64,000 bases of DNA, from assembly GCA_000196815.1 (NCBI GenBank), contig FP929003.1, positions 2,069,501 through 2,133,500 on the forward strand, given 5' to 3'. The notes beneath the pieces are model-generated. The model worked only from the letters and a program-made list of their open reading frames with translations. It did no database searches and was not told the origin of the DNA. Positions 2,665 to 27,125 of the stretch are shown here, one piece after another; the first letter of the stretch is position 1, and the number at the start of each line of letters is the position of its first letter. Source of the stretch: Nitrospira defluvii. GTDB taxonomy: Bacteria > Nitrospirota > Nitrospiria > Nitrospirales > Nitrospiraceae. The position numbers and the translations under genes were made by a program.

Positions 2665-2715
2665 GGCAGACGGTCGGCAGCACGCAGGCATTCAACCATG
2701 AGGGGGAGGTATTCG

Positions 2716-3750
2716 ATGAACCATGAGTCAGGAGCGTCCTGCGGAACGCGTCCCGGAGTGAACGGCATGGTGACGAGGAACGGCGGTCTCATGATCGAGC
2801 CCCTCTCGTCCGACGGCAGTCTTCCCCTGGTGGTGACACCGGTGGAGGAGAGAGCACTGGACGGCTACCTCGCCGCCGCGCGCCACTATGCGGAGGCATT
2901 TCTGCCGGTCAGCGGTGGCCTGCTCTTCCGCGGCTTGCCGATCCGATCCGTTGCGGACTTCGAGTCGTTCGTCGGCGGGTTCACGTCGTCGTTGGTGTCC
3001 TACGAATTCGGCTCGACCCCCCGGTCGCGCGTGCAGCGACAGGTCTACACCTCAACCGAATACCCGCCGCATCAACATATCCCGCTCCACAACGAACAGG
3101 CCTATACGAGGGAATGGCCGATGAAGATCTGGTTTTATTGCGGGCAGGCCCCCGAGGAGGGAGGCTACACCCCGATTGCGGACAGCCGAGAGGTCTATCG
3201 CCGGATTCCGGCCTGCATCCGGGAACGCTTCAACCGGAATCAGATCATGTATGTGCGCAACTATGGCAACGGCCTGGATGTGCCCTGGCAAAAGGTGTTC
3301 AACACGGAAGACCCTGCGGTGGTGGAAGCATTCTGCCGGACGAATGGAATTCTGTACGAGTGGAAAGCCGACGGCGAATTGCGCACCAGGCAGGTGGCGC
3401 AGGCGATCGCGGTCCATCCCCTGACGGGCGAAACGGTCTGGTTCAATCAGGCGCATCTGTTTCATGTCTCCAATCTGGAACCGGCGGTGCGTGAGGACCT
3501 GTTGGCCGTCGTGGCGGAGGAAGACCTGCCCCGAAATGCCTGTTACGGAGACGGCAGCCCGATCGAGTCCGATCTGCTGGATGAAATTCGCGACGTCTAT
3601 CGGAGCGTGGCCGTGCAATTCTCCTGGCAGGAGGGCGATGTGATGATGCTCGACAACATGCTGGCCGCCCATGGCCGCACGCCTTTCAAGGGCCGGCGGA
3701 AGATTCTGGTGGCCATGGCGGAATCTTGCAGAGTCGGTCGTCCATGCTAA
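2716..3750 (+). CDS. SyrP-like Fe(II)/2-oxoglutarate-dependent aspartyl beta-hydroxylase (stand-alone)
   Basis: A 344-residue enzyme of the TauD/clavaminate-synthase-like superfamily, closest in style to SyrP, which hydroxylates carrier-bound Asp at the beta carbon. The metal triad is visible as HNE (H125, E127) and a distal His at about 319 ([11 protein letters not shown]), with Arg residues behind it for 2-oxoglutarate. Family segments [21 protein letters not shown] and [12 protein letters not shown] are present. The ATG at 2716 is preferred over 2698 because GGGGGAGG lies at 2702-2709. The gene sits between the thioesterase and the first synthetase, and its stop overlaps the next start. 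Two Asp modules exist downstream and a second hydroxylase is fused to the third synthetase, so each probably serves one Asp. Beta-hydroxyaspartate is a common bidentate iron ligand in siderophores. Confidence 0.92.
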
Positions 3751-6700
3751 TGCCCCACGATCAGACGCAAGACCCGCTGGCCGATGTTCATGGATCGGAG
3801 CCGGAGCAGTACCTGTTTCCCATGAGTTTCGGGCAACGGCGGCTCTGGTTTCTTTCGCAGTTGGAACCGGAGAGCGCCTCCTATAACACGGCCATTGCTG
3901 TGCGGATGAAGGGGCGGGTGGATCGCCGGCTCCTGGTGGATTGTTTCAACCGCATCGTGGAACGGCATGAAGTCCTGCGCACGAGCTTCAGCACCGAACA
4001 CGGGGAGCCGGTTCAGATCATCGCGACCGTTGGTCGAGTGACATTGGAGACCGACCTGGTGGCGAATCAACCGGAAGCCATCCTGGTCGCCGCGCGTGAC
4101 GAAGCGCAACGTCCGTTCAATCTTCAGCAGGCGCCGCTGCTCCGGTTACGCCTGTTCGACATCGCAGACGATGATCATCTGTTGGTCGTCACTCTGCACC
4201 ATATCGTGTGTGACGGATGGTCGGCACAGATCCTGGCGCGGGAATTTGCGCAGCTGTATGTCGAGGCGGTGGAGGAGACCGATGCCCCCTTGCCTGCGCT
4301 CCCCATCCAATATGCGGACTATGCGGAATGGCAACGCGGGTGGCTGCAGGGAGCGGTCCTCGATCGGCACCTGGCCTATTGGACCCGGCACCTGGCTGGA
4401 GACCTCCCGGTCATCGAACTCCCGACCGACCGTCCGCGCGGGGCCGTGCAAACGTCGTCGGGCAGCCGGTATGTCTTTACTCTGCCGCAGTTCGTGGCCG
4501 ACGGGTTGCGGGAACTCAGCCGGCGCCACAACGTGACTCTCTTCATGACCCTGTTGGCCGCGTGCCAGACCTGGCTCATGCGCTATACGGGCATCGGCGA
4601 TGTCTGTGTCGGCACCCCCATTGCCTGCCGGACCAAACGCGAGACGGAAGATCTCATCGGCTTTTTCGCGAATACCCTCGTCCTGCGTACGGATCTTTCG
4701 CAAAATCCGACCTTCCCGCAGTTGCTCGAACGGGTCCGTGAAGTCGTGCTCGGAGGGCAGGAGCATCAGGAGTTGCCGTTCGAGGAACTCGTCGATGCGT
4801 TGAAGCCCGCGCGGGCCCTGAGCCATTCGCCGCTCTTCCAGGTGTTGTTTGCGCTACAGACGACGTTGGCTGAAGCCGTTCGCTTGCCCGGGTTGCACGT
4901 CGAGATCACCGAGGTCGATGCGGCAGCCGCGAAGTTCGATCTCTCGCTGGACATGGCCGAGACGGAGGCGGGCCTGGAGGGAGCCCTCGAATACAACACC
5001 GATCTGTTCGATGCGGCGACCGTTGCCCGCATGGCCGGACATTTCCAGACCCTGTTGGCCGGCATCGTCGAGACGCCGGATTGCAGACTGCATGAGTTGC
5101 CGCTTCTGTCGGTCGAAGAGCGGCAAGAGGCTCTGCTGGTCGGGCCTGATGACCGCGTCACAGACGAGTGTTTCGACTTTGCCGCCGCATTCTCGGCCCA
5201 AGTCGAGCGGAGTCCGGATGCCGTTGCCGTCGAATGCCGGGGGGAAATCAGGACGTATGCCGAGTTGAATCGGGAGGCCGAGCGGATCGCTCGCGCACTG
5301 ACCGTCTCCGGCATCGGCCCGGACAAGATCGTCGCCCTGCTGCTGGACCGCGGCATTGGTCTCCTCACGGCCATCGTGGGGGTGTTGAAGGCGGGCGGGG
5401 CGTACCTGCCGCTGGATCCCTCCCACCCTCCGGCCCGTTGGGGCGAATTGATTCACTCGAGCGCGGCGTCCGTTGTCATGGCGAGTGAGTCCTATCGCGC
5501 TCGTGTCGCGGAGTCCTCTCCGCGGTTCGCATCCGGCGACACGATTCTGCTCGCTATCGAGGACTGTGAGGGAAATACAGAGAACGCGTCGCCTCCTCCC
5601 TGTATCTGCTCGCCGGACCAATTGGCCTACGTCATCTACACCTCCGGCTCGACCGGCATTCCCAAGGGCGCCATGGTGACGCAGCGAGGCTTGATGAACC
5701 ACCTCTGGAGCAAGCGGGACTCGTTGGGGCTGGGTGCCGATGACGTCGTCGCACAGACGGCCTCGGCCTGTTTCGACATTTCCGTCTGGCAGCACCTGGC
5801 CGCGCTCATCTGCGGTGGACGGACCCTGATCGTGCCGGATGACGAGGCCCGTGATCCGGTGCGGCTCGTGATCTGTCTCGAACGCGATGCGGTCACCGTC
5901 GCAGAAACTGTGCCGGCGCTGCTCAAGGGCATAGTGGATGGGCCACAAGCAGCCGACGTCCCCCTGCGATCGTTACGGTGGCTGTTGCCTACGGGTGAAG
6001 CGCTGCCGCCGCCGCTCTGCCGCGAGTGGCTGCGACGGTACCCCCATGTGCCGCTGGTGAATGCCTATGGCCCGGCCGAATGTGCCGATGACGTCGCGAC
6101 GGCGACGATCGCCTCGCCTCCGGCTGCCGATGAGCTCTGTATGCCGATCGGGCGGCCCATTCGGCGGACGCGACTCATCGTGGTGGATCGATGGCTGGCG
6201 CCGGTGCCGGTCGGAGTGCCCGGTGAACTCTGCATCGGCGGCATCGGGGTCGGACGGGGCTACCTGCAGGATCCTGCTCGCACGGCTGCCGCCTTCGTGC
6301 CCGACCCCTTCGGAACGGAGCCTGGTGCGCGCCTCTACCGAACCGGAGACCTGGTGCGCCGTCGAAAAGACGGCAGCCTGGAATTTCTTGGCCGGGTGGA
6401 CCATCAAATCAAATTGCGCGGGGTGCGGATCGAACCGGGAGAAATCGATGCGCGTCTTCGGGAGCTGGCGGGAGTTCGGGACGCCGTCACGGTGGTGCGA
6501 GAAGATCGGCCGGGCCAGAAACGCTTGGTGGCCTATGTCGTGACGAGCGACCAGGCGGCGTCGTCGATCGAGACATGGCGCGCTCCGCTACGCTCTCAAT
6601 TGCCTGAAGTGATGATCCCGTCGCGGTTCGTCCGACTTGATGCTCTTCCCCGCACGCCGAACGGCAAGGTGGATCGAGCGTCGTTGCCGGTTCCCGACGA

Positions 6701-9700
6701 CCCGGGTGACGAGGGCTACGCGGCCCCCCGTAACTCAGTTGAAGCGCAGGTGGCGCTGATCTGGGCGGAGGTGTTGCAACGGGATCGGGTCGGAATCCAC
6801 GACAACTTTTTCGAGCTCGGCGGCGATTCCATTTTAAGTCTCGAGGTGGTGAGCCGGGCCCGGCAGGCCGGTTTCAACCTGACGCCGCGGCAGGTCTTCC
6901 AACATCAGACTGTGGCGGAACTGACAGCATTGCTGGCGCAGTCGATCGAAGTCCCTCCGGCGATCACTGACGAAGAGCTCTCGGCTGAACTGGTCGACGC
7001 GGCGACGGGCGCGGCGGCGAAGGCCGCCTGCGCGAATTATGAGGATGTCTACCCGCTGAGCCCTCTGCAGCAGGGGCTTCTCTTTCATAGTCTGTATGCC
7101 CCGGCCTCCGGCGTCTATATCGAGCAGATGAGTTGGCGGATGGCGGGCGAACTGGACGTGCCGGCGTTCCGCGAGGCGTGGCAGCAGACCGTCGCTCGTC
7201 ACCCGCTGTTACGGACGAGGTTTCTGTGGCGGGAAGTGTCGTCGCCGATTCAGATCGTGCTGCCGGCCGCCGAGATTGCGTGGCGCGAGGTGGATGGACA
7301 GGACGGTTCACCCAGCGACCGGGCGGCCCGGTTCAGCCGATTGGTGGAGGAGGATCGGCTGACGGATTTCGACTTCGAACGGCCGCCCTTGATGCGGATC
7401 CTGTTGTTTCGCGTCGGCCGGGACTCCTACGACGTGCTCTGGACGCACCACCACATCCTCATGGACGGATGGTGTCTGCCGATTCTGTTGCAGGAAGTCT
7501 TGACGGCATACCAAGCCTTGCGGCGAGGAGCGGCTCCGTTGTTCGAACCTGTCGTGCCCTATCGGCATCACATCGTTCGGCTTCTTGGACAGGATCAGGC
7601 CGAGGCCGAGCGATTTTGGCGTACGGCCTTGAAGGGAGTCACGACGCCGACGGTTCTGGGCGAAGAGGTCGCGCCCGAAGAGGCCGGTCAACAACGCTCA
7701 AGCGGCACCGCCGCCATCACGCTGTCGCCCGAGGCCAGCGCGCAGTTGCTCCTGTTCGCACAGAGGCATCATGTGACGCTCAATACCCTCGTGCAGGGCG
7801 CGTGGGCACTGTTGTTGAGCCGGTACAGCCGAGAGTCGGAGGTGCTGTTCGGTACGACCGTGTCCGGCCGGTCTGCCGACATGCCCGGGATCGAACGGAT
7901 GGTCGGTCTATTCATCAACACCCTTCCGCTGCGGGTCCGGGTGGCTCCGGACGCCGTCCTCTCTGAATGGCTGCGAGCTCTGCTGGAGCACAACAGTGAA
8001 CTACGGCAATTTGAACAGACGCCCCTGGTGCAGATCCAAGGCTGGAGCGGCGTGCCTCGCGGGCAAGCCCTCTTCGAGAGTCTCATCGTCTTCGACAACC
8101 ACCCGTTGGATGAGTCGTTGGAGCAAACAACGGGCCTCACCATTCACGCGGTCACACTCCAAGGACAGACGAATTATCCCCTGACGCTCAACGTGTTACC
8201 CGGACAGGAACTGACGCTCTCGCTCTGGTATCACCGGAACCGGTTCCGCGACGAGACTGCTACCCGCATGGTGCGGCAGCTCGAGACGCTGCTCACGGCC
8301 ATGATACAGAACCCTCATGCGCGCCTGGGTCTCCTTCCGCTGCTGGCGGCGGCGGAGCGGTCGCAGGTGGTGGAGGCGTGGAACCGGACGGGGCGGGCGT
8401 ATCCGGCGGGGGCGGTGCCGGCGCAGATTGCGGCGCAGGCGGCGCGGACGCCGGAGGCCGTGGCCGTGCGGGCCGGCCGGACGACGGTGACCTATGCGGC
8501 CTTACTCGCGCAGGCGTCCCGACTCGCCCAAGCGCTCCAGGCGCGCGGGATCGGCCCGGAAGGCCTGGTCGCCGTGGCGCTGGAACGGTCGGTGGATTTG
8601 GTCGTGGCGCTGCTCGGCACCTGGTACGCGGGCGCCGCCTTCGTGCCCCTGGATCCGACCTATCCCACCGAGCGGCTGCGGTACATGCTGCAGGACAGCC
8701 AGGCCGCGCTGCTGCTGACCGACGCCGTCCAGGCCGCGCGCCTGGCGCACGACGGCCCGACCCTCTGCCTGGATCGGGACCGCACCACCCTCGACGGGTA
8801 TCCCCTGACCCCGCCGGTACAGGCGACCACCGGAACGCAGCTGGCCTATGTCCTCTACACCTCCGGCTCCACCGGGCAGCCGAAAGGCGCCGGCAACAGC
8901 CACGCGGGCCTCCGCAACCGGCTCCAATGGATGCAAGAGGCCTATGGGCTGACGCCGGCGGACCGCGTCCTCCAGAAGACCCCGATCAGCTTCGACGTCT
9001 CCGTGTGGGAATTCTTCTGGCCGCTGCTCGTCGGCGCCGAACTGGTCATGGCCGAGCCCGGCGCCCACAAGGACCCGGCCCGGCTGATCCAGCATATCGT
9101 GGAGCAGGGCATCACCACCCTGCACTTTGTCCCGCCCATGTTGCAGGCCTTCATCGACCAGCCCGGCGTCGAGACCTGCCGGAGCCTCCGGCAGATGCTC
9201 TGTAGCGGCGAAGCCCTGCCGGCTACGCTGCCGCCGCGGGTGCAGCAGCGGCTGCCGGAGGTCGCCCTGCATAACCTCTATGGCCCCACCGAAGCCGCCA
9301 TCGACGTCACCGCCTGGACCTGTCCGACGCCCCCCGCCGCTACTGTGCCCATCGGGCGGCCCATCGCGAATCTCCAGATCTATGTGCTGGATCCCCAGGG
9401 CGAACCGGTGCCGATCGGCGTGCCGGGGGAGTGCTACATCGGCGGGATCGGGGTGGGGCGGGGCTACCATCGGCGGCCGGACCTGACGGCCGCGCGGTTT
9501 GTGCCGGACCCCTTCAGTGAGCAGCCGGGGCAGCGGCTCTATCGGACCGGCGATCTCGTGCGGTACCGGCCCGACGGCGCCATCGAATACCTGGGGCGGT
9601 TGGACCATCAAGTCAAGATCCGGGGCGTGCGCATCGAGTTGGGCGAAGTGGAGGCGGCCCTGCGGCAGCAGCCGGGGATCCGGGAGGCCGTGGTGCTGGC

Positions 9701-10262
9701 GCGCCGGGACGGTCCCGGCGGAGCCCGGCTCGTCGGGTATGTGACGACGGTCCCGGAGCCGCCCTTCGACGCGGCCGGCTTGCGGCAGGCGCTCGCGCAG
9801 ACGCTGCCGGAGTATCTGGTGCCGGCGGTCATCGTACGACTGGCGCAGCTGCCCCTGAGCCCGAACGGGAAGGTGGATCGCCGGGCCCTGCCCGCGCCGG
9901 AGGTGGAGGCGCAGCGCACCCAGGCCTATGCCGAGCCGACGACGGCCACCGAGCAGCAGCTGGCCGCTATCTGGGCCCAGGTGCTCGGCCTCGCCCGGGT
10001 CGGCCGCCACGACAACTTCTTCGAACTCGGCGGCGATTCGATCACAAGTTTACAGGTCCTCGCCAAGGCTCACCGTGAGGGCATCACGCTGACTCCGAAG
10101 CAACTCTTTGAGCATCCGACCATCGCGTCGGCCGCTGCCGTCGCGGTGATCGGAACCGCCGAGGCCATGCCCCCGTTGCCGGATGAGAAGCGGGCGGATG
10201 GGATTGTGGACGTGGAATTGAGCGACGAGGAGATGGAGAACCTCTTGAAGGAGATTGGATAG
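3744..10262 (+). CDS. Non-ribosomal peptide synthetase 1, C-A-T-C-A(Ser)-T
   Basis: A protein of about 2172 residues with two modules. C1 has intact HHIVCDG at residues 152-158. A1 has TSGSTG near 632 and a FDISVW core at 678; reading it against GrsA gives DIWELTADD plus Lys, where E278 and D331 resemble codes for diamino acids (Orn/Dab), but I cannot name the residue. T1 carries its phosphopantetheine Ser at 1029 (GGDS). C2 has HHILMDG at 1236. A2 has TSGSTG near 1705 and code DVWHLSLID plus Lys, the classical serine code. T2 Ser is 2099. The C terminus is acidic ([14 protein letters not shown]), a possible docking tail. There is no starter A domain, so C1 may condense an acyl starter, although its [10 protein letters not shown] start looks like an ordinary LCL domain. 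The ATG at 3744 overlaps the hydroxylase stop; 3750 is an equal alternative. Confidence 0.95.
8335..10042 (+). repeat. Direct repeat copy 1: serine A-T block
   Basis: A 1708-bp segment running from the C-A linker (TTCCGCTGCTGG) through the whole Ser adenylation domain to just after the phosphopantetheine Ser codon of the T2 carrier domain. It is repeated at 14856-16563. The only difference I found is T at 8806 versus C at 15327 (Leu to Pro, in GYPLTPP versus GYPPTPP). The flanks diverge at once on both sides. Confidence 0.97.
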
Positions 10263-10264
10263 GC

Positions 10265-13200
10265 ATGCAGGCGAACAGGATCGAGCAGGGAACGGCCGAA
10301 CGCGCGGCGAGCGGAGGGCTCAAGAACATCGAGGCAATTTATCCGCTCTCTCCCATGCAGGAGGGCATGCTGTTCCATACGCTGATGAATCCCGGCACCG
10401 GCATCTACCTGATGCAGAACCGTTACTACGTGGAAGGGGAGATGGACGCCGAGCTGTTTCGGAAGGCATGGGAACAGGTCATCGCGCGTCATTCGATTCT
10501 GCGCACCTCCTTTGTCTGGAAAAGTCAGAAGCGTCCCTTGCAAGCCGTCCACAAGGAGATCGAGGTCCCGCTCGATGTCATGGACTGGAAGGGGAAGGAA
10601 CGGGCGGAGCAGACGGCCGACCTTGACGCCCTGCTGCAGCAGGAACTGGAGCAGGGGTTCGACTTCGGCAAGGCGCCGCTCATGCGCCTGCGGTTGATCC
10701 GCCTGACCGATCGCACCTATCAGTTCGTGCATAGTTTTCACCACATTCTGCTCGATGAATGGTGCATCTCACCGCTGCTGATGGATTTCCTGGCTCACTA
10801 CGAAGCCTGCGCTCAAGGCCTCGTCTGCCGGGCGGAGAAGCCCAGGCCCTATCGGGACTATATCGCCTGGCTGCAAAAACAGGATCTGGATGACGCGAAC
10901 CGGTTTTGGCGCGACTACCTGCGCGACTTCTCCACACCCACGCCGCTCGCCTACGACCGCCCGCCGCAAGGATTGGCCGATCAAAACGACGATGCGGCGG
11001 ACCACTGCGTTCATTTGAGTCCCGACCTGACGGCGAGACTCACAACCCTGGCGCAACAACATCGCGTGACGCCCAACACCTTCGTGCAGGGGGCCTGGGC
11101 GATTCTGCTCGCATATTACAGCGGAGAGCGGGACGTATTGTTCGGGGTCACGGTGGCCGGTCGTCCGACGCAACTCCTGGGTGTCGAATCGGTGCTGGGG
11201 TTGTTCATCAATACCCTGCCTCTGCGGGTCTCGGTCTCGCCGGAACAGCCGGTGCTGGCCTGGCTCAAGAATTTGCTGGCGGAGAACATCCGGCTTCGTG
11301 AGTACGAATATACCCCGCTCATTCAGATTCAACGCTCCAGCAAGGTTTCGCGCGGAGAAGCCCTCTTTCACAGCCTGTTCGTGTTCGAGAACGCGCCGGT
11401 CGACCCGGCGCTCTGCGAAGGGCGGATCATGTTCCGGGCCGAGGAAGAGCAGTATCGGGTCCACACGAACTATCCCATGACGGTCATGGGCTGGCCTGGC
11501 AAGGAACTGGGACTCAAGCTCTCCTACGACCGCCGGTTGTTTGATTCGGAGACGGTCCTCCGGATGATCGGGCACCTCAAGCGCATCCTGGAAGGTCTTA
11601 TCATGCGGCCGGACGCCCGCATCGGCGACCTGCCGTTGCTGGATCATGAGGAACGGGCATCGCTGTTGGCGCATGGGACCGGCCAGACGGAAGGACCTCG
11701 GGACGAGCGCAGTTTCGCGACGCGTTTCGAAGCGCAGGTGAGGCGGAACCCGCAAGCCGTAGCGGTGACCTGTGGCGACGGGTCGTTGACCTATGAGGCG
11801 TTGAACCGCCGGGCCAATCGACTGGCGAAGCATCTGAGGACGGCCGGAATCGACCCGGACTCGATCGTGGCCCTGCTGGATGAGCGGGGTCCGGACCTCC
11901 TGACCATGATCGTGGGTTGTTTCAAGGCCGGCGCCGCCTATCTGCCCCTCGATCCGCACCATCCGGTCGCGCGCATCGCGCGGCTGCTGGAGTTGAGCCG
12001 CGTAGCTGTCGTCGTGACTTCGTATGGGCTGAAGGCCTACCTCGACCAAGTGCTGTCGGCGATGCCGGCAGCGTCCCGCCCGCTGGTGCTGACGTTGGAC
12101 GACCTGTGGTCGGGACAGGGGTGCGACGATGATCGCCCGATACCCTCTCGGATGGATCAGCTGGCCTATGTCATCTACACGTCCGGATCGACCGGCGTCC
12201 CTAAGGGGGCGATGGTCACGATGGGCGGCATGCTCAACAACATGGAGAGCAAGCTGACCTCCCTGTCGATCGGGCCGACGGGTGTGATCGCGCAGACCGC
12301 ATCGCAATGTTTCGACATTTCAGTCTGGCAATTCCTGACCGGGCTGCTCTGCGGCGCGCGGACCCATATCGTGTCCGACGAATTGGTGCGGGAGCCGGCA
12401 CGGTTGCTCGCGCACCTGGACGAGGCCGGCGTCACCATCTATGAAGCCGTACCCGCGGTGCTGCAGGCCTTACTGGATGCGGGCGACCGGTCTGAATCCC
12501 AGCGGAGGTTCTCGCGCCTGCGCTGGGTCCTGCCGACGGGCGAGGCCCTGCCGCCGGCCCTCTGCCGCCGCTGGTTCGAGCGCCACCCGGACATTCCCTT
12601 GATGAACGCCTACGGCCCGGCGGAATGTGCCGACGATGTGGCCGTCCATCCCATTCTGGCCCCGCCGCCGGAGGATGCCGTCAGGGTCCCGATCGGGCGG
12701 GCCATCCAGCACCTGCGGCTCTATATCCTCAATCGGTTTTTTGCGCCGGTCCCGCTTGGGGTCTCGGGGGAATTGTGCATCGGCGGGGTCGGCGTCGGTC
12801 GTGGATATGTGGAGGATCGGCTCCGCACGGCGCAGGCGTTCGTGCCGGATCCCTTCTCAACTGAGCCGGGGGCGAGGCTCTATCGAACCGGCGACCTGGC
12901 CCGCTACCGTCCCGACGGCACGATCGAATACGTAGGACGCATGGACCATCAGGTCAAAGTCCGCGGATTCCGTATCGAGCTGGGTGAAATCGAATCCTGT
13001 CTCACCGATCAAGACGAGGTTCGCGAAGCGGCGGTCATCGTCCGCGAAGATCGTCCTGGGGAGCGGCGGTTGGCCGCCTATGTCGTGCCGCAGGACGGGC
13101 GGTCGATCGACAGCGAACAGCTGCGAACGGCGCTTCAGACGCAGCTCCCCGAGTACATGGTGCCGTCGATCTTCCTGACGCTCGATGCGCTGCCGCGGAC

Positions 13201-16200
13201 ACCGAACGGCAAGGTGGACCGGAAGGCCTTGCCCGCTCCCGACCTGGATGGCGCCGGCGGATCAATCTACGTGGCGCCCCGGAGCGTCACGGAAGAGTTG
13301 CTGGCCGGCATCTGGGCGGACATCCTCGGCCTGGAGCGGGTGGGGGTGCGGGACCATTTCTTCGAGCTTGGGGGGCATTCCCTCTTGGCCACCCAGGTGG
13401 TCTCCCGTATCAGGAGTGCGTTTCAGATCGAGCTTCCATTGCGGGCCGCCTTCGAATGTCCGACCGTCGCCGACCTGGCCGCGACGGTGGATCGGGTTCG
13501 CGCGGAAGGAAACGGCAGACAGGTTCCCGCCTTGACGGCCGGGCGTCGAGAAGGGCCCGCTCCGTTGTCCTTTGCGCAACAGCGGCTCTGGTTCCTGGCG
13601 CAGCTGGATCCGGAGAGCTGGCTCTACAACCTCTCGTTCGGACTCCGGCTCCGGGGGCCGCTCGATGTGGACGCGTTGCGTGGCAGCTTCGGAGCCGTCG
13701 CGATGCGGCATGACCAGTTACGCACGCGGTTTCTCCGTGCCGAGGGCCGCCCGGTGCAAGTGACAGCGGAGTCTCCAACGCTTCCATTCGAGCGACAGTT
13801 TGCCGATCCGGCGCCCGGGGTTTCTTTGGACCAGCACGTCGCCGATCTGGCCGCAGACGAGGCTCGACGGCCCTTCGCCCCGGAAGGCAGCCTCTTATGG
13901 CGCGTGAAGCTGGTGCAATTGAGCGAACAGGACCATCTGTTGCTCGTGACCCTGCACCATGTCATTGCCGACGGCTGGTCGTTGAATCTGTTGCTGTCGG
14001 ACATGGTTGCGGCTTACGACGCCTTGCGCGCGGATCAGCCTGTTCCATGGACGGCTTCAACGTTGCACTACGCCGATTATGCGCAATGGCAGCGCGGGTG
14101 GATGACCGGCGACGTACTGGAACGCGAGTTGGAATATTGGAAGCGGACGCTCGCGGGAGCGCCGTCTATGCTGAGCCTGCAACCCGACCATCTCCGTCCT
14201 ATTGTCCAGACCTTCCGCGGTGCGCGACACACCTTCACGATCCCCCGGGAGCTGACCTCCACGCTGCAGACACTCGGCCGTCGACAGGGCACCACCCTGT
14301 TCATGACCCTGCTCGCGGCCTTCCAGGTTCTACTGCATCGCTACAGCGGCGAGGTGGATCTCTCCATCGGGACGCCGATTGCGAATCGCACCAGCCTCGA
14401 AACGGAGGAGTTGATCGGCTTCTTCGTCAACACTTTGGTGCTGCGTACCGACCTGAGCGGCAATCCTCGGTTCGTCGACCTCCTCGAGCGGGTGCGGGAA
14501 ACGGTGCTGGGCGCTCAGGCCCATCAGGACGTGCCGTTCGAGCAGGTGGTCGATGCGCTCAAACCGGAGCGTGATCTCAGCCATGCACCGCTCTTTCAAG
14601 TGATGTTCGCCCTGCAGACGCTCGGGCGGCAGGCGATGGAGATTCCGGGTCTCACGATCGAGGCGGTCGAGGTCGATCCCGGGAGCGCCAAGTTCGACCT
14701 GTCGTTGGAGATGACGCTGGCCCCGGAGGGACTCACCGGCTTTTTCGAATTCAATCTCGATCTCTTCGAAGCGGCCACGATCGGCCGCATGGCCGACCAT
14801 TTCCTCACCCTGCTTGCAGGTCTCGCGGCGGAACCGCAACGGAAGCTGGTCGAGTTTCCGCTGCTGGCGGCGGCGGAGCGGTCGCAGGTGGTGGAGGCGT
14901 GGAACCGGACGGGGCGGGCGTATCCGGCGGGGGCGGTGCCGGCGCAGATTGCGGCGCAGGCGGCGCGGACGCCGGAGGCCGTGGCCGTGCGGGCCGGCCG
15001 GACGACGGTGACCTATGCGGCCTTACTCGCGCAGGCGTCCCGACTCGCCCAAGCGCTCCAGGCGCGCGGGATCGGCCCGGAAGGCCTGGTCGCCGTGGCG
15101 CTGGAACGGTCGGTGGATTTGGTCGTGGCGCTGCTCGGCACCTGGTACGCGGGCGCCGCCTTCGTGCCCCTGGATCCGACCTATCCCACCGAGCGGCTGC
15201 GGTACATGCTGCAGGACAGCCAGGCCGCGCTGCTGCTGACCGACGCCGTCCAGGCCGCGCGCCTGGCGCACGACGGCCCGACCCTCTGCCTGGATCGGGA
15301 CCGCACCACCCTCGACGGGTATCCCCCGACCCCGCCGGTACAGGCGACCACCGGAACGCAGCTGGCCTATGTCCTCTACACCTCCGGCTCCACCGGGCAG
15401 CCGAAAGGCGCCGGCAACAGCCACGCGGGCCTCCGCAACCGGCTCCAATGGATGCAAGAGGCCTATGGGCTGACGCCGGCGGACCGCGTCCTCCAGAAGA
15501 CCCCGATCAGCTTCGACGTCTCCGTGTGGGAATTCTTCTGGCCGCTGCTCGTCGGCGCCGAACTGGTCATGGCCGAGCCCGGCGCCCACAAGGACCCGGC
15601 CCGGCTGATCCAGCATATCGTGGAGCAGGGCATCACCACCCTGCACTTTGTCCCGCCCATGTTGCAGGCCTTCATCGACCAGCCCGGCGTCGAGACCTGC
15701 CGGAGCCTCCGGCAGATGCTCTGTAGCGGCGAAGCCCTGCCGGCTACGCTGCCGCCGCGGGTGCAGCAGCGGCTGCCGGAGGTCGCCCTGCATAACCTCT
15801 ATGGCCCCACCGAAGCCGCCATCGACGTCACCGCCTGGACCTGTCCGACGCCCCCCGCCGCTACTGTGCCCATCGGGCGGCCCATCGCGAATCTCCAGAT
15901 CTATGTGCTGGATCCCCAGGGCGAACCGGTGCCGATCGGCGTGCCGGGGGAGTGCTACATCGGCGGGATCGGGGTGGGGCGGGGCTACCATCGGCGGCCG
16001 GACCTGACGGCCGCGCGGTTTGTGCCGGACCCCTTCAGTGAGCAGCCGGGGCAGCGGCTCTATCGGACCGGCGATCTCGTGCGGTACCGGCCCGACGGCG
16101 CCATCGAATACCTGGGGCGGTTGGACCATCAAGTCAAGATCCGGGGCGTGCGCATCGAGTTGGGCGAAGTGGAGGCGGCCCTGCGGCAGCAGCCGGGGAT

Positions 16201-18136
16201 CCGGGAGGCCGTGGTGCTGGCGCGCCGGGACGGTCCCGGCGGAGCCCGGCTCGTCGGGTATGTGACGACGGTCCCGGAGCCGCCCTTCGACGCGGCCGGC
16301 TTGCGGCAGGCGCTCGCGCAGACGCTGCCGGAGTATCTGGTGCCGGCGGTCATCGTACGACTGGCGCAGCTGCCCCTGAGCCCGAACGGGAAGGTGGATC
16401 GCCGGGCCCTGCCCGCGCCGGAGGTGGAGGCGCAGCGCACCCAGGCCTATGCCGAGCCGACGACGGCCACCGAGCAGCAGCTGGCCGCTATCTGGGCCCA
16501 GGTGCTCGGCCTCGCCCGGGTCGGCCGCCACGACAACTTCTTCGAACTCGGCGGCGATTCGATTCTCGGGCTGCAGGTGATCACGCAGGCGAAGGAAATC
16601 GGGCTGTTGCTGACGCCGCGGCAGTTATTTCAGCAGCAAACGGTTGAGCGCCTCGCGGCGGTGGTGAATCTGGAGTCGCCTGCCATGCCTACAATCCAGG
16701 CGGAGCAGGGTTTGGTGTCGGGATTGGTGCCGATGACTCAGGCCCAGCGCTGGTTGTTCGAACAACGGCTGTCCGAACCCCATCACTGGAACCAGTCGCT
16801 CATGGTCACCATGTCGGAAGCGCCGGATCAGGCCAGGCTGACGCGCGCGCTACGGAGGGTGATCGAACAGCACGATGCCTTGCGCACCCGCTTCGACCTC
16901 TCGAACGGTCCGACCGCAAGGATCGAGGCAAGCGTTCCATGTGGGGATCTTTTGTCGTCCGTCGATCTCAGTCGGGTCTCCGATCAAGAGTTAACGGCCG
17001 CTGTCTCCAACGAGGCCGAAGGGTACCAGCAGAGCCTCAATCTGGAGGAAGGGCCTTTATTTCGAGCGGTGCTGTTCGATCTGGGGCCGAACCGGCCCGG
17101 CAGGCTCCTATTGATCGCCCACCATCTCGTGGTCGACGGGGTGTCGTGGCGTATTCTCCTGGAGGACCTTGAGCGGGCGTATGGCGTGGAGCAGGGAGGC
17201 CAACCGGTCTTTCCACCCAAGACCACATCGATCAAACAGTGGACCGATTCGGCACAGGCCTTGGCTGAATCCGGAGTGCTCCTGGGTGAGCTGGACTTCT
17301 GGGCCAAACAGGACCAGTCCATGGATCGTTCGTTGCCGCTTGATGATCCGGCGGGAGAACGGACCGAAGCCTCGGCGGAGACCTGTCACGTCGGGTTCAG
17401 TAGGGAAGAGACGGAAGCCCTGTTGCGGCAAGCGCCGGCTGCCTACAGGACCCAGGTGAACGATCTCCTGTTGGCGGCCTTGGTCCAAACGTTCCATCGC
17501 TGGACGGGCCAGGAACAGCTGTTGCTGGATCTTGAAGGACATGGCCGTGAGCCGGTCATTCCGGGGACCGATCTCTCGCGTACCGTCGGGTGGTTCACGA
17601 GCATCTTTCCACTCCTGCTCCGGCTTCCGGGCGGCTCGATGGGCGAGGTCGTGAAAGGGATCAAGGAACAATTGCGGGCCGTGCCGTCCGGCGGGGTCGG
17701 GTATGGAGTTCTTCGGTATCTGGCCCGTTCGCCCGAGACGGATCGTCTCCGGCGTCAGTCGGCGGCGCAGGTCTGCTTCAACTATCTGGGGCAGCTCGAT
17801 CGAGGCAGCAGTGAACAGGCCCTGTTCGGGTTGGCGTCAGAGCCCACGGGGAGGGAACACGGTTCATCGAACCGGATGCGATATGAACTTAGCATCAACG
17901 CGGATGTCACGGAGGGGCGGCTGAGCGTGAACTGGACTTACAGCCGCGCGCGAATCAAACCGGCGACGATCGAAATGCTTGCCGCCTCGTACCGGCAGCG
18001 GTTGTGCAACCTGATCGTCCATTGCTGCGCGCCGGACGCCGGCGGGTATACCCCGTCTGATTTTCCGGACGTTGCAATCGAACAGGATGCCCTCGACAAC
18101 ATTCTTGAGATCATGGAACGGAATCATGCGCGATAA
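10265..18136 (+). CDS. Non-ribosomal peptide synthetase 2, C-A-T-C-A(Ser)-T-E
   Basis: A 2623-residue protein starting 2 bp after the previous stop. C3 begins [18 protein letters not shown] and its active-site motif is HHILLDE (159-165), with Glu replacing the usual last Gly. A3 (TSGSTG near 638) reads DIWELTADD plus Lys, the same as module 1. T3 is of the GGHS type (Ser 1039). C4 has a normal HHVIADG at 1231. A4 reads DVWHLSLID plus Lys (serine) and is the second copy of the 1.7-kb repeat. T4 Ser is 2099 (GGDS). The C-terminal epimerase is shown by [13 protein letters not shown] (2286 on), GYGVLRYL and CFNYLGQ, so residue 4 should be D-Ser. The 3' end overlaps the next start by 11 bp. Confidence 0.96.
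14856..16563 (+). repeat. Direct repeat copy 2: serine A-T block
   Basis: Second copy of the 1708-bp block at 8335-10042, offset exactly 6521 bp. It again spans the linker, the full A domain and the carrier domain up to GGDS. One base differs (15327 C versus 8806 T). Because the two gene starts are also 6521 bp apart, the block occupies the same residue range (about 1531-2100) in both synthetases. Confidence 0.97.
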
Positions 18137-21100
18137 ACAGCAGATCGAAGCGATGTACTATCTGTCCCCGCTGCAACAGGGACTCTTGTTTCACCGGCTC
18201 GCCGACGCGGAGGCCGATCCCTACTTCTATCAATATGCCTACCGGCTGCAGGGCGATCTGCGGCTCGATGCCTTCGAAGGGGGCTGGCGCCATGTGGTCG
18301 AGCGCCATGCGGTGCTCCGCACGGCGTTCGTCTGGGAGGGAGTGGAGAAGCCGCTGCAAGTCGTGCGTCGGCAGACCGCTCTGCCCATCGAGCGGCATGA
18401 CTGGCGCGGCGTGCCGGAGGAAGAGCAACGGTTGCGATTCGCGGCTCTCCTCGATGGCGATCGCGCCGCCGGACTCGACCTATTGCGGCCGCCCCTCATG
18501 CGACTGCACGTCATTCGCAAGACGGAGCGAGAATGGCTGTTGGTCAACAGTCATCATCACATCCTTCTGGATGGGTGGAGTATGGCGCTCGTGCTGCGCG
18601 ACGTCTTGACGGCCTACGAGGCGCTGGTGCGGGGGGCCGCTCCGACAGTCGAGTCGCCGCGGCCATACCGCGACTACATCAGCTGGGTCAATCGGCAGGA
18701 TCTGGTCCAGGCCGAAACATTTTGGCACGCGATGCTGGCAGGGATTCAGCGTCCAACGTCCATCGTGATCGAGGCGCCGTCGCAAGACACTCCAGCCGAG
18801 ACTCTGCCCTTTGCCGAGCAGTCCTTAGGTTTATCGATTGACAGGATGGAGGCGCTCCAATCCTTGGCGAAGCGAGTGAAGGTCACGGTGAATACCCTGC
18901 TGCAAGGGGCCTGGTCCCTCTTGCTGCATCGCTACAGCGGAGAGAGCGACATTCTGTTCGGAGCGACCGTATCGGGGCGCCCGCCTGAACTCGCCGGCGT
19001 CGAGGAGATGGTCGGGTTGTTCATCAACAGCCTGCCGATTCGAGTGACCATCCGGCCGGATCAGCCGCTCGGGGACTGGCTGCGTGACTTGCAGGAGCGG
19101 AACGCGGTGTTGCGCCAATATGAATGGACCCCGCTCAGCGATATCCAACGATGGAGCGACGTCCCCAATGGGACGCCTCTGTTCGAGAGCCTGGTCGTGT
19201 TCGAAAGTTATCCGGAGGGCTCGCATGACGGGGAACCATCATCGTTGAGCATCGAGCCCTTGGCCGCGCGGTCGGGCGACGTCTATACGCTCACGCCGGG
19301 ACGCAACAACTATCCCCTTTCGTTGATGGTGGAACCGGGGCGGGATCTGCGCCTCATCGTCTGTTACGCCCACCGGCGGTTTGCGCATGCGGCAATCGCC
19401 CGCATGCTGGGTCATCTCGATCGCTTGCTCGCAGCCATGGCGGAAGCACCCGAGGCGAGGTTGTCAGACCTCTCTCTGCTGACGGATGACGAACGAAAAC
19501 AACTGATCGAGTGGAACGGAGCTTTCACGTCCGACGAGACCGGGGCACGCTGCATCCACGACCTGATCGCCGCCCAGGTGGAGGCAAGGCCGGAGGCCAC
19601 GGCGGTGGTGACCAAGCAGGGGCAGGTGACCTATCAGGAACTTGACCGGCGAGCGGCTGCGCTGGCGCGATATCTGCTGGCGCAGGGTGTGAGACCGGAT
19701 GATCGGATCGGCCTCTGTCTGGACCGTTCGTTGGATTTGGTGGTCGGGATCGTTGCCGTGCTCAAGGCCGGCGGCGCCTATGTCCCGCTCGACCCGACCT
19801 ATCCCCGTGAGCGGCTGGCCGCGATGGTCGCCGATAGCCAGGCCCGCCTCATCGTCACCCGGGGCGACCAGGCACAGGGCGTATCTGATTTTTCGGAACG
19901 GCTGATCCTGCTCGATCGTCAAGCGGAGGAGATCGCAGGATGTAGCGAAGGGCCAACGGCCGTTCCACTGTCACCGTCGAATCTTGCCTATGTGATCTAT
20001 ACCTCCGGCTCCACCGGTCGTCCCAAGGGAGTGGCCGTGGAACATCGGCAGGTGACGGCCTATGTCCGCGCGATCCTGCAACTCGACCCGGTGGCCGCCG
20101 GTGCGAGCATGGCTGCGGTCTCGACGGTGGCCGCCGATCTCGGCAACACGGCCTTGTTCGGTGCGCTCTGTTCGGGGCGTACCCTGCATCTGCTTTCGAC
20201 GGAGGACGGCTTCGACCCCGACGCGATGGCCGCTGCCATGCATGGGCGGCAGGTCGAGGTCCTGAAGATCGTCCCGAGCCACCTCAGGGGACTCCTCCAT
20301 GCGGCGCAACCAGAACGGGTGTTGCCAACCCGTTGCCTCATCCTCGGTGGCGAGGCCCTGCGCCGTGACCTCGTGCAAGAGATCCGCCGGCTCGTGCCCG
20401 GCTGCGCGATCGTCAATCACTACGGCCCGACCGAAACGACGGTCGGCGTGTTGACCCATCTGGTTGAAGCATCGCAGGGCCAATCCGAGAGCGACGTGCC
20501 GATCGGTCGCCCACTCTCCTTCAACCAGGCGCATGTGCTCGACAGCGATGGACAACCGGTCCCGCTCGGTCTGCCGGGAGAACTCTACATCGGCGGGCAG
20601 CAAGTCACGCGTGGGTATCTCGGCCGACCAGAGGCGACGGCGGAGCGTTTCATTCCCGATCCTTTCAGCCGCGTGCCTGGAGCCAGGATGTACCGTACGG
20701 GCGACCGGGCGAAGCGGCGAGCCGACGGCACGGTTGAATTTCTGGGACGTGTCGATCATCAGGTCAAGCTGCGCGGGTTTCGCATCGAGCTGGGCGACAT
20801 CGAGGCGCAACTGCGACGAGAGCCGGGGGTGTCCGATGCCGTTACGATGGTCCGCGAGACCGGCGACGGCACGCCGCAACTCGTGACCTATCTGGCCGGA
20901 CCCTCGACGCTGGATACGGCCGGCATTCGGGCCAGGCTTGCGCATAGCCTGCCGGACTACATGGTGCCGCAACACTTCGTCCTTCTCGACGCCTTTCCCC
21001 TGACTGCGAACGGCAAGCTGGACCGGGCCGCGTTGCCTGATCCCGGACAGCAGACTGCCGCGGCGCTGCCATCCTATGTTGCGCCGCGCAACAGGACCGA

Positions 21101-24100
21101 GGAAATCCTCGCCGCCATCTGGCAAACCGTGTTGCAGGTCGAACGGGTGGGTGTGCACGACAACTTTTTCGCGCTGGGAGGCGACTCGATCCGCACGCTG
21201 CAGGTCATTGCGCGCGCCAACCGGCAAGGCGTGAAACTGACGCCCAAGCAACTCTTCGAACATCAAACGGTGGCGGCCGCCGCGGCGGTGGCGCAGGTGA
21301 AACCGGCCATGCCGATCGAAGCCGGGCAAGCGTCGGTGCAGCACGAGGACACCCGGCCGACGGCAGGCGATCCCACCTCAGCACAGACGATGCCGGAGGC
21401 GACGGCTCTTGTCATGCCGGTCTTTCCGCTCACCGGGTTGACGCCGGAGGAGCTGGCAGGTCGGCGTGAGGATTGGGGGGAGATCGAGGACTGTTACCCG
21501 CTGTCGCCGATGCAGGAAGGCATGCTGTTCCATACGTTGATGAACCCCGGTTCCGGCATTTACCTCATGCAGCAATTTTACGCCTGGGAAGGGCGTCTGG
21601 ATCGGGAAGCCTTCGGCCGCGCCTGGCAACGCGTCATCGACCGGCACCCGATGCTCCGCACCTCATTCATGTGGAAGGATTTGCAGGCGCCCCTTCAGGT
21701 CGTCCATCGGCGTGTCGCTGCGGAGGACGTGATTCAGGACCTGGATTGGGCGGACATGAGTGACGAGCAGCAACCGATCCGCATGGGGGAGATGCTGGAG
21801 CAGGAATTGAAAGAAGGGCTGGATTTCGAACAGGCGCCGCTCATGCGCATTCGTTTGGTCCGCCGTGGTCATGACCGGTACGCCATCGTGCGGAGCTTCC
21901 ACCATATACTCACCGACGACTGGTGCTTCTCGCTGCTGATGATGGATTTTCTTGCCCACTACGATGCCTGCATCCAATGGCGTACGCTGGCGCTGCCTCC
22001 GCCGCCGCCCTATCGGGACTACATCGCCTGGCTGCAACGACAGGACCAGGCTGCGGCTGAGCAATTTTGGAAACAGGAATTGGCCGGCTTCACCACGCCG
22101 ACCCCGTTGGGGATCGAACGGCTCGACCCCGATACCTCCGCAAGCGGGTCCGAAGTGCGCGACGAGTTCATGGAGTTATCGCCGGAAGTGTCCGCGCGGC
22201 TGCGAACCTTGGCTCAGCAACATCACGTGACTCCGAACACCTTTGTGCAGGGAGCCTGGGCCATTCTGCTGTCGCGTTACAGCGGGGAGGCACAGGTGTT
22301 GTTCGGCGTGACCGTCGCCGGGAGACCGACCGACCTGCCCGGTGTCGAGGACATCGTAGGGCTCTTCATCAACACCCTGCCGCTTCGTGTGACCCTGTCG
22401 CCCGATCTGCCGGTGATGACGTGGCTTCAGCACCTGTTGGCGGAAAACTATCGCATCCGGCAGTACGAATACGCGCCGCTGGTCCGCATTCAACAATGGA
22501 GCGAGATCCCGTCCGGACAGGCGCTCTTCCGCAGTCTGCTCGTGTTCGAGAATGCCCCGAAGGACGCGCGTCTCGGCGAAGAACGGGACGATCGCGCCCT
22601 CTCGTACGACCAGGACCGCGTGCACACGAATTACCCAATGACCGTGGTCGGGTATCCGGGCGAGTCCATGGGAGTGCGGCTGTCGTATGACCGGCGGCTC
22701 TTCGAGCGCGCGGAGGTGGCCCGCATGTTGGAGCATCTCAAGCGATTGCTCACGGCCATGGCGGCGTCTCCCGAGGCGTCGATACAAGACCTGCCGATGC
22801 TGGATGAGGCAGAGCGTCACCGCCTGCTGGTGGAGTGGAACGGGCGCGACCGCAGTGAGCCGGCGGCCGCGGATTTTTCCACCCGGTTCGAAACCCAAGT
22901 GCGACGAACCTCGGAGGCCGTTGCGGTGGAATGCGGCGACGACCGTCTCACCTACGACGAACTCAACCGCTCCGCCAATCGGATTGCCCATGGACTGCGC
23001 AGGCGCGGCGTGGGGACGGACGGCATTGTCGCGCTGTTGGACGACCGGGGGCCGGCGCTGCTGTCGATGATCGTGGGCGTGCTGAAGGCCGGTGGTGCCT
23101 ATCTGCCGTTGGATCCGCATCATCCGGGTGAGCGACTGGCGGAGATCCTGGCGTCTGCCCGAGTGAAGGCCGTGATATTCGGGAACCGGCAGGCGGCCTT
23201 GGCTGAGACGGTCGCGACCATGCTGCCGGCGGGTGTCGGACCGGATTTCGTTTCAGTTGAAAACTTCGAAAGGGATGCGCAAGGGGAGTGCAATCTTACC
23301 CCGGTGACGGCACAGCAACGCCTCGCCTATGTCATCTTCACGTCCGGGTCGACCGGGGTGCCCAAGGGGGCGATGGTCGAAACCCGGGGGATGATGAATC
23401 ACCTTCTGACCAAAATTCCGACACTCGCGCTTGGTCCCGCCGATGTGGTCGCCCAGACCGCTTCACAATGTTTCGATATTTCCGTGTGGCAATTCCTGAC
23501 CCCGTTGCTCTGCGGCGCCAAGGTTCAGATCATTCCCGACGAAGTGGTGCGCGATCCGCAACGCCTGTTGGCTGAGGTTTCGGTTCGCGGCGTGTCGGTG
23601 CTTGAGGTGGTGCCCTCGTTATTGGGCGGCCTCTTGGAGGGCCCGTCGTCGCCCCTGCCGCGACTGCGGTGGTTGCTGCCCACGGGAGAGGCCCTGTCAC
23701 CGGACCTGTCGCGTCGATGGTTCGCCCGCTACCCGACCGTGCCGCTCGTGAACGCCTACGGTCCGGCGGAATGTTCCGACGACGTGGCGCTCGCCTGCAT
23801 TCGCGAGCAGCCCGCCGAGGCTGAATTCAGGATGCCGATCGGGCGGCCGATCGAGGGGGTGCAACTGTATGTTCTGGATCGCCGTCTGGATCTCATGCCG
23901 GCCGGAGTAGCCGGAGAGTTGTATGTGGGTGGAGTGGCGGTGGGTCGCGGGTACCTGAGTGATCCGGCGAAGACGGCCGCGTCGTTCGTCCCGGATCCCT
24001 TTTCATCCCGGCCGGGGAGCCGGCTCTATCGGACCGGAGATCTGGCCCGTCACAGGCCGGACGGCGCGCTCGAATTCGTGGGACGTCGTGATCACCAGGT

Positions 24101-27100: not shown

Positions 27101-27125
27101 AGCCGTTCACTCCATGACGTCATAG
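18126..27125 (+). CDS. Non-ribosomal peptide synthetase 3, C-A(Asp)-T-C-A-T-C with C-terminal SyrP-type beta-hydroxylase
   Basis: A 2999-residue protein. C5 has HHILLDG (144-150) and follows an epimerase, so a DCL role is expected. A5 (TSGSTG near 625, core AADLGNTAL with D671) reads DLTKIGHVG plus Lys, an aspartate code. T5 Ser is 1021. A Pro/Ala-rich linker leads to C6, whose motif is HHILTDD (1259-1265), Asp replacing Gly. A6 reads DIWELTADD plus Lys, the same as modules 1 and 3. T6 Ser is 2131 (GGHS). C7 has HHIAADA (2323-2329). A charged linker (about 2630-2650) leads to a hydroxylase domain with metal ligands H2776, E2778 and H2970, similar to the stand-alone enzyme at 2716. The start at 18126 overlaps the previous stop by 11 bp. 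No A-T pair follows C7 here; these domains lie on the next protein. Confidence 0.95.

What the first reader, a model, noticed from the sequence alone, without database searches (positions are those of the whole stretch)
8335..16563. 1708-bp serine A-T block duplicated with a single base difference
8335-10042 and 14856-16563 are identical except 8806 T / 15327 C, while the flanking C, T and E sequences are unrelated at base level. The block runs from the C-A linker to the carrier Ser codon, so a whole A domain plus most of T has been swapped as a unit. This is recent gene conversion or duplication and marks natural recombination boundaries for module exchange. The block also sits at the same residue range in both proteins.
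Basis: seen in the sequence. Interest (0 to 1): 0.75.

Follow-up and report, generated by a model that had tools for sequence, protein, structure and literature searches.

The report
Self-homogenising serine cassette in peptide synthetase
Two enzyme modules that both appear to add serine to the same small peptide (probably an iron-scavenging one) keep overwriting each other's DNA between nearly the same two points, in several related bacteria independently, which is a clean new case of an already known way in which these assembly lines evolve.

Summary
It is not a one-off duplication. The two modules are old: their upstream C domains sort by position in all genomes compared, but the A-T block sorts by genome. 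In 7 of 9 genomes with two full copies, the copies are at least 99.6% identical (dS 0-0.006), while between species the block differs by 6-35%. So the pair is homogenised again and again (concerted evolution, best explained by gene conversion), with edges at nearly the same bases: C-A linker on the left, just after the carrier Ser on the right. Exceptions are informative: one genome seems to have imported module 4 from a relative; one carries the in-frame two-module contraction that crossing over between the blocks predicts; one has the block pasted into module 8, changing its predicted specificity. A different cluster in the genus has A-T repeats, some ending at the same place. Precedents exist (mcyB1/mcyC; concerted evolution of assembly lines), so this is an unusually clear new member of a known kind.

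The parts
3726..10262 (+). NRPS gene 1: modules 1 and 2, C-A-T-C-A-T (2178 aa, listed with a TTG start)
   Evidence: ORF; Pfam C x2, A x2, T x2; A codes DIWELTADD and DVWHLSLID
7020..8348 (+). Module 2 condensation domain, position-specific left flank of copy 1
   Evidence: Domain query used; in the tree of the 1300 bp upstream of the block the 14 module-2 rows and the 12 module-4 rows are parted by one 100/100 branch
8335..10042 (+). Copy 1 of the homogenised A-T block (Ser-type A plus about the first half of T)
8806..8806 (+). Only difference from copy 2: T (CTG, Leu) against C (CCG, Pro) at 15327
   Evidence: the residue varies in relatives: A, P, S, V, T, R
10043..14855 (+). 4813-bp loop between the copies: end of gene 1, module 3 (C-A-T) and module 4 C; the part missing from the six-module relative G029
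   Evidence: Coordinates
10265..18136 (+). NRPS gene 2: modules 3 and 4, C-A-T-C-A-T plus a third condensation-family domain read as E (2623 aa)
   Evidence: ORF; Pfam Condensation x3, A x2, T x2; motif [10 protein letters not shown] at residue 2286 (reading it as E is recalled and no family model confirmed it, one search lists only 25 of 107 families)
14856..16563 (+). Copy 2 of the homogenised A-T block
16564..18136 (+). Second half of the module 4 T domain plus the E-type domain, position-specific right flank of copy 2
18072..27125 (+). NRPS gene 3: modules 5 and 6 (codes DLTKIGHVG and DIWELTADD), then a C-like domain and a TauD-type dioxygenase domain
27134..34312 (+). NRPS gene 4: modules 7 and 8 and thioesterase; the module 8 A position is where relative G004 carries a third copy of the block
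2698..3750 (+). Free-standing TauD-type dioxygenase gene upstream; a TauD match lies at the same place in the relatives whose fetched stretch reaches it

Best explanation
The two blocks are the Ser-type A domains plus the first half of the carrier domains of modules 2 and 4 of one eight-module peptide synthetase, probably for a siderophore. Being alike, they can recombine, and one is copied onto the other. This ectopic gene conversion recurs, so the copies inside each genome stay nearly identical while species diverge (concerted evolution). The tract stops where homology stops: on the left in the C-A linker, on the right just after the phosphopantetheine Ser. The left (C) and right (second half of T, E) flanks stay different by position. 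SHOWN: identity, edges, tree conflict, near absence of silent divergence, and in relatives a contraction and a third copy in module 8. INFERRED: homologous recombination of the RecA type as the machinery, functional fit as a reason why flanks stay unconverted, the direction of the contraction, and the chemistry of the product.
For: Nine genomes have two full copies. Seven are homogenised; mismatches over the maximal segment: G000 1 in 1708, G004 0 in 1708, G006 0 in 1706, G011 4 in 1703, G024 0 in 1699, G057 0 in 1729, G075 0 in 1711. Block dS within these genomes is 0-0.006 against 0.39-1.01 between them. Block tree of 22 rows: the c1/c2 label needs 9 changes, above the shuffled mean of 7.0; tree of the 1300 bp upstream (27 rows): 14 c1 rows against 12 c2 rows, one change, 100/100. 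Right edge relative to the first base of the Ser codon: +4 in five genomes, +5 in G057, +1 in G006. After the Ser, each of the 13 module 2 reads has one type of sequence and each of the 13 module 4 reads another (part of the genomes). Same predicted specificity alone is not enough: the three DIWELTADD A domains are 57-63% identical as DNA in the three genomes where all three were compared. The predicted by-product, an in-frame fusion of module 2 C-A-T to module 4 E, is found in G029, one contig. G004 has a third copy in module 8, 1 mismatch in 1656 bp.
Against: Two of nine genomes are not homogenised: G016 (80.1%, dS 0.62) and G111 (86.5%, dS 0.40). G016 is accounted for by an imported segment; G111 is not, though its copies are still sisters. 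G025 (partial copies) shows 10 mismatches in 408 bp, so less complete homogenisation. No reads were available, so error cannot be excluded for any one genome; 'one contig' is no proof of completeness, since G009 is one record with N runs. The tree tool warned of long branches meeting in the upstream tree and the downstream tree has no starred branch. Direction of conversion was not determined. Identical edges could be one inherited homology limit. Not every A-T repeat ends at the Ser: G004's third copy ends 50 bases before the Ser codon and one G007 unit ends in the A-T linker.
Confidence: 0.9

Rival explanations
1. A single recent duplication or transfer of the A-T block from one module to the other in this strain.
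For: One difference in 1708 bp is what one recent event in this genome would give.
Against: Modules 2 and 4 with Ser-type A domains, in the same order and 6521-6536 bp apart in the seven homogenised genomes, are also in other species of the genus, in other genera of the family and in another family, six of them with their own near-identical pair.
Confidence: 0.03
2. Assembly artefact: one repeat consensus was copied into both places.
For: G006, G009, G019 and G025 break or mis-join at this block, so assemblers struggle here; no reads could be examined.
Against: Three one-contig genomes without N in the stretches used (G000, G004, G075) show it; the copies in G000 differ at one base; relatives with diverged copies (G016, G111) are assembled as diverged.
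Confidence: 0.04
3. No conversion: purifying selection keeps two old copies alike.
For: Both copies carry the same predicted specificity code.
Against: Silent sites are nearly identical within genomes (0, 0, 0, 0, 1, 1 and 2.7 synonymous differences) but 30-56% different between the same genomes; protein selection cannot do that.
Confidence: 0.01
4. The A-T pair is kept as a recombination switch: crossing over between the direct repeats loops out module 3 and the C domain of module 4, giving a shorter synthetase in part of the population, so that one locus makes two peptides.
For: The repeats lie in the same codon phase in both genes, so deletion is in frame; a six-module form exists in G029; in draft G019 the contig reads module 2 C - block - module 4 E, with the loop as a separate 5066-bp contig that overlaps the block by about 127 bases at each end.
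Against: The G019 picture is also what a short-read graph collapse gives; no genome shows both forms with read support; G029 may be a simple fixed loss.
Confidence: 0.08

Closest known systems
mcyB1/mcyC recombination in the microcystin synthetase cluster (Fewer et al. 2007, PMC2174460; passages read)
   Same: Recurrent exchange of A domains in two modules of one NRPS cluster, in a range of producers; [quoted passage not shown]
   Different: There breakpoints are inferred statistically in 10 strains, with further breakpoint sets inside A in some; here edges are read to the base and recur in seven genomes, and the two modules keep the same predicted specificity.
Concerted evolution of PKS/NRPS domains (Medema et al. 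2014, PMC4256081; abstract and passages read)
   Same: Domains of one cluster group together instead of by module position; the authors describe modules trapped in a cycle of divergence and internal recombination.
   Different: In the passages read it is shown by domain trees (KS, AT, A, C); here one sub-module unit is homogenised to 0-5 differences with sharp edges while same-code neighbours in the cluster are not.
Landscape of natural NRPS recombination (Baunach et al. 2021, PMC8097286; passages read) and recombination hotspots (Calcott et al. 2020, PMC7486941; passages read)
   Same: A domains exchange independently of C domains; one exception (BP18) exchanged Asub with a large part of Acore and part of T; hotspots include the C-A junction.
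   Different: The usual unit there is Acore, with native C-A linker and Asub-T interface kept; here the whole A domain goes with part of the linker and the first half of T.
XUT engineering site, T1/2-C-A-T1/2 (passages read in PMC11355689, and PMC11761351; the original paper was not read)
   Same: Fusion inside the T domain.
   Different: Engineered; here a comparable mid-T boundary occurs naturally, and the unit is linker-A-T1/2 without a C domain.
Natural module losses: two modules before nodularin, mentioned in PMC8097286, and one module (3.4 kb) before type IV pyoverdine, mentioned in PMC11366639
   Same: Contraction of an assembly line, as in relative G029.
   Different: In G029 the junction lies within the A-T block whose two copies are kept alike in relatives, which suggests the substrate of the crossover.

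Membership tests
Concerted evolution by gene conversion | Paralogues within a genome more alike than orthologues between genomes | tested here: met
   7 of 9 genomes at least 99.6% against 65-94% between species; the two copies are sisters in 8 of 9. Not met in G016.
Concerted evolution by gene conversion | Flanking sequence keeps the orthologous relation | tested here: met
   Upstream tree: 14 c1 against 12 c2 rows parted by one 100/100 branch, with a long-branch warning; downstream tree: one change, support 93/84, no starred branch
Concerted evolution by gene conversion | Silent sites homogenised as well | tested here: met
   dS 0-0.006 in seven of nine genomes; 0.62 and 0.40 in G016 and G111
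Concerted evolution by gene conversion | Dependence on homologous recombination (for example recA) | not testable with these tools
   Needs a genetic experiment
A-domain exchange unit of NRPS recombination | C domain excluded from the unit | tested here: met
   Left edge in the C-A linker; left flank 34-42% identical in the six c1-c2 comparisons with a readable left flank
A-domain exchange unit of NRPS recombination | Native C-A linker and Asub-T interface of the recipient kept, as in the majority reported by Baunach et al. | tested here: not met
   The unit includes part of the linker, all of A and the first half of T
Mid-T exchange site (XUT-like) | Boundary inside the T domain next to the active Ser | tested here: met
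   +1 to +5 bases from the first base of the Ser codon in seven genomes; in a different cluster (G007) two of five unit pairs end at GG|HS against GG|DS. Not met by the third copy of G004 (50 bases before) nor by the two G007 pairs with unit 4 (A-T linker).
Phase-variable recombination switch | Both arrangements present in one population | tested here: inconclusive
   Only the ambiguous G019 assembly

The most novel reading that the evidence does not exclude
The homogenised A-T pair is kept as a recombination substrate that lets one locus alternate between an eight-module and a six-module synthetase, so that a population makes two siderophores and the lineage can gain or lose two residues in one in-frame step.
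Probability: 0.08. Interest if true: 0.8.

Novelty: new member of a known kind. Interest (0 to 1): 0.55.

Why it matters
How NRPS modules exchange parts, and where they can be cut, is a practical and long-debated question. This locus is a replicated natural experiment: the same pair, homogenised in at least seven lineages, with edges legible to the base. It marks a workable natural unit (part of the linker, A, first half of T) and supports splitting T at the Ser, the second half staying with what follows. It also shows, within related genomes, three outcomes of such a repeat: homogenisation, contraction by two modules, and a copy in a third module with a change of predicted specificity.

Tried and rejected
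Recent duplication: rejected, because the two modules are orthologous by position across genera and families. Purifying selection alone: rejected on silent sites. Same specificity as sufficient cause: rejected, same-code DIWELTADD and DLTK-type A domains are 55-63% identical as DNA in the genomes compared. Donor deduced from the LGGDS carrier motif: given up, because modules 1 and 5 of this cluster carry the same motif. A rough repeat background: of 80 NRPS loci from other organisms (chosen by similarity to module 4 C, at most 10 kb each side), 5 held 7 internal direct repeats of at least 400 bp and 93% identity, the best 98.4%, with varied edges. The first edge-finding script stopped several bases early by its look-ahead and was replaced by a maximal-segment score. 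In one search the upstream C-domain figures that involve G004 module 2 are unreliable (that stretch holds an in-frame stop) and none of the upstream figures is used here.

Organism: not established. The genome-contig scan may leave out the window's own genome and near ones and returned none of them. The contig length 4,317,083 reminds me of the published genome of Candidatus Nitrospira defluvii; that is recall only.

Rows dropped: of the 21 of 269 class genomes with a match at E 1e-80 or better (own genome included), nine have two full copies and were compared; G019 and G025 have collapsed or partial copies; G020 and G029 have one Ser copy in modules 2/4; G084, G110, G113 and G135 have a DIWELT-type A in module 4; G089, G134 and G152 were not fetched; G007 is a different cluster. 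G009 (seen) shows only the edges of the block around N runs. G020's module 8 copy was left out of the block trees because the stretch cut for it was out of frame (18 stops).
Full report
1. Observation. The two stretches are as described: 1708 bp, one mismatch, ends maximal, no other repeat with an exact 25-base match in the window. The mismatch changes Leu to Pro about 50 bases before the A3 motif, at a residue that is A, P, S, V, T or R in relatives, so it looks harmless. The own genome is one contig with two full copies.

2. Context. Four collinear NRPS genes encode eight modules. Codes read by alignment: modules 1, 3 and 6 DIWELTADD, 2 and 4 DVWHLSLID, 5 and 7 DLTKIGHVG and DLTKLGHVG, 8 DVEGIGAIT. 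By recall these suggest diaminobutyrate, serine and aspartate, the last a known target of TauD-type dioxygenases such as those fused to gene 3 and free upstream. A penicillin-amidase-family gene, an AcrB-type pump, TonB-dependent receptors and FecR-like regulators lie around. A peptide siderophore with hydroxyaspartate is my reading; it was not tested.

3. Relatives. Searches covered 61 genomes, 29 of the genus, 235 of the order and 269 of the class, own genome included each time; the block reached E 1e-80 in 21 of 269. Nine genomes have two full copies in modules 2 and 4: six of the window's genus (G000, G004, G006, G011, G016, G024), G075 and G111 from two other genera of the family, and G057 from another family of the order. 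In seven the copies are near-identical over 1699-1729 bp with 0-4 mismatches, although between genomes the block is far more different (70-85% among the six of these; dS 0.39-1.01 over all pairs of the seven). The closest relative seen, G019, is 93.6%.

4. Trees. In the block tree (22 rows) copies join by genome in 8 of 9; in the upstream C-domain tree (27 rows) they join by position without exception (earlier version without G075 and G111; the tool warned of long branches). That is the classical signature of concerted evolution. Each of the seven pairs must have been homogenised after its lineage left its nearest sampled relative (inference). For the window's genome, one difference between copies against 6.4% to G019 puts the last conversion at about a hundredth of the time since that split, if rates are even (inference).

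5. Edges. Right edge: 4 bases past the first base of the Ser codon in five genomes, 5 in G057, 1 in G006. Left edge: in the C-A linker, 512-538 bases before A3. After the Ser the sequence is position-specific: module 2 reads I(T/N)(S/T)LQ, module 4 reads I(L/V).LQ in the 13 genomes where both were read, including four with a DIWELT-type A in module 4 and G020. Two readings fit: an old homology limit that confines later tracts, or selection against tracts that enter the half of T facing the next domain. A separate cluster in G007 bears on this (five pairs of units): two pairs with 1 mismatch in 1673 bp begin at the WN motif of the linker and part at GG|HSLL against GG|DSIL; one pair of two HSLL modules runs from inside the C domain to three residues past the Ser; the two pairs with a fourth unit end earlier, in the A-T linker. 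G004's third copy ends 50 bases before the Ser codon. So the mid-T edge is common, not exclusive.

6. Exceptions. G016 (80.1%): its module 4 region, from about 200 bp before the block to the end of the stretch compared (inside E), is 85-100% like G024 per 100 bp, while further upstream it is more like G006; G016 and G024 are also sisters in the E tree. An import from a G024-like donor replaced one copy. G111 (86.5%): sister copies, older, unexplained. G020: module 4 C, A and E are 49-58% like the window's as proteins while modules 1-3 are 90-95%. G029 (one contig): module 2 C, one Ser A-T, then a module-4-type second half of T and E in one open frame of 2646 residues, with no module 3; its C side resembles G111 module 2 and the part after the block G111 module 4. 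The two copies of the window lie in the same codon phase in genes 1 and 2, so a crossover between them gives this in-frame fusion. G029's E is sister to G111's (100/100) and its block sister to G111's pair; eight-module forms lie on both sides of the midpoint root, so contraction is the simpler direction, though that root is for drawing only and transfer of the cluster is possible. G004: the block also sits in module 8, 1 mismatch in 1656 bp from copy 1; module 8 carries another code in G000, G011 and G016, and an older Ser-type A in G020.

7. Drafts. G019 joins module 2 C through one block to module 4 E and leaves the loop as a 5066-bp contig overlapping the block by about 127 bases at each end. 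I read it as a graph collapse, but a mixture of forms is not excluded. G006, G009 and G025 also end or gap at or inside the block.

8. Literature. Searches: (open-access library only). Concerted evolution in NRPS/PKS and an A-to-mid-T exchange unit are in print (PMC4256081, PMC2174460; passages read); the predominance of Acore swaps and the BP18 exception are in PMC8097286 (passages). The terms nonribosomal, concerted evolution and adenylation domain occur together in two papers of that library, of which I read passages of one (PMC9205934). No paper on this cluster turned up in these searches, but as the organism is not identified this says little.

9. Verdict. Observation confirmed; interpretation partly supported and enlarged: not one recent duplication but recurrent homogenisation with nearly constant edges, plus in relatives a natural contraction and a third copy in module 8.

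Noticed in passing
G004, locus L021 (reverse strand), module 2 C of gene 1: Gene 1 of this one-contig genome has one in-frame stop inside the condensation domain (open stretches of 1091 aa, from the start of the part scanned, and 1062 aa in the same frame), although its A-T copies are identical; pseudogene or sequence error.
   Followed up: partly
L123 and L124 (G007:C1:848000-880000): A different NRPS cluster of the same genus has at least four A-T units over 99% alike and a repeat of about 3.1 kb at 98%; two of five unit pairs part at the carrier GG(H/D)S.
   Followed up: partly
L033 (G019:C2, 5066 bp) and L032: The loop between the blocks is a separate small contig while the main contig carries the fused module; collapse or real heterogeneity.
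   Followed up: partly
L034, L035 (G020:C9): Mosaic cluster: modules 1-3 90-95% like the window, modules 4 and 5 only 49-59%, then an A domain with code DILQLGLVW before the TauD domain, and a Ser-type module 8.
   Followed up: partly
window 24690-27077: Gene 3 ends in an extra condensation-like domain followed by a TauD-type dioxygenase, resembling the hydroxylase-with-interface arrangement of hydroxyaspartate siderophore synthetases (recalled).
   Followed up: no
window 39249-62682: Three TonB-dependent receptor genes, each with a FecR-like gene next to it, and two genes for TonB C-terminal proteins follow the cluster.
   Followed up: no
own genome G000:C1:1649225-1653900: Further partial matches to the block (66-83%) about 420 kb away suggest a second NRPS locus.
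   Followed up: no
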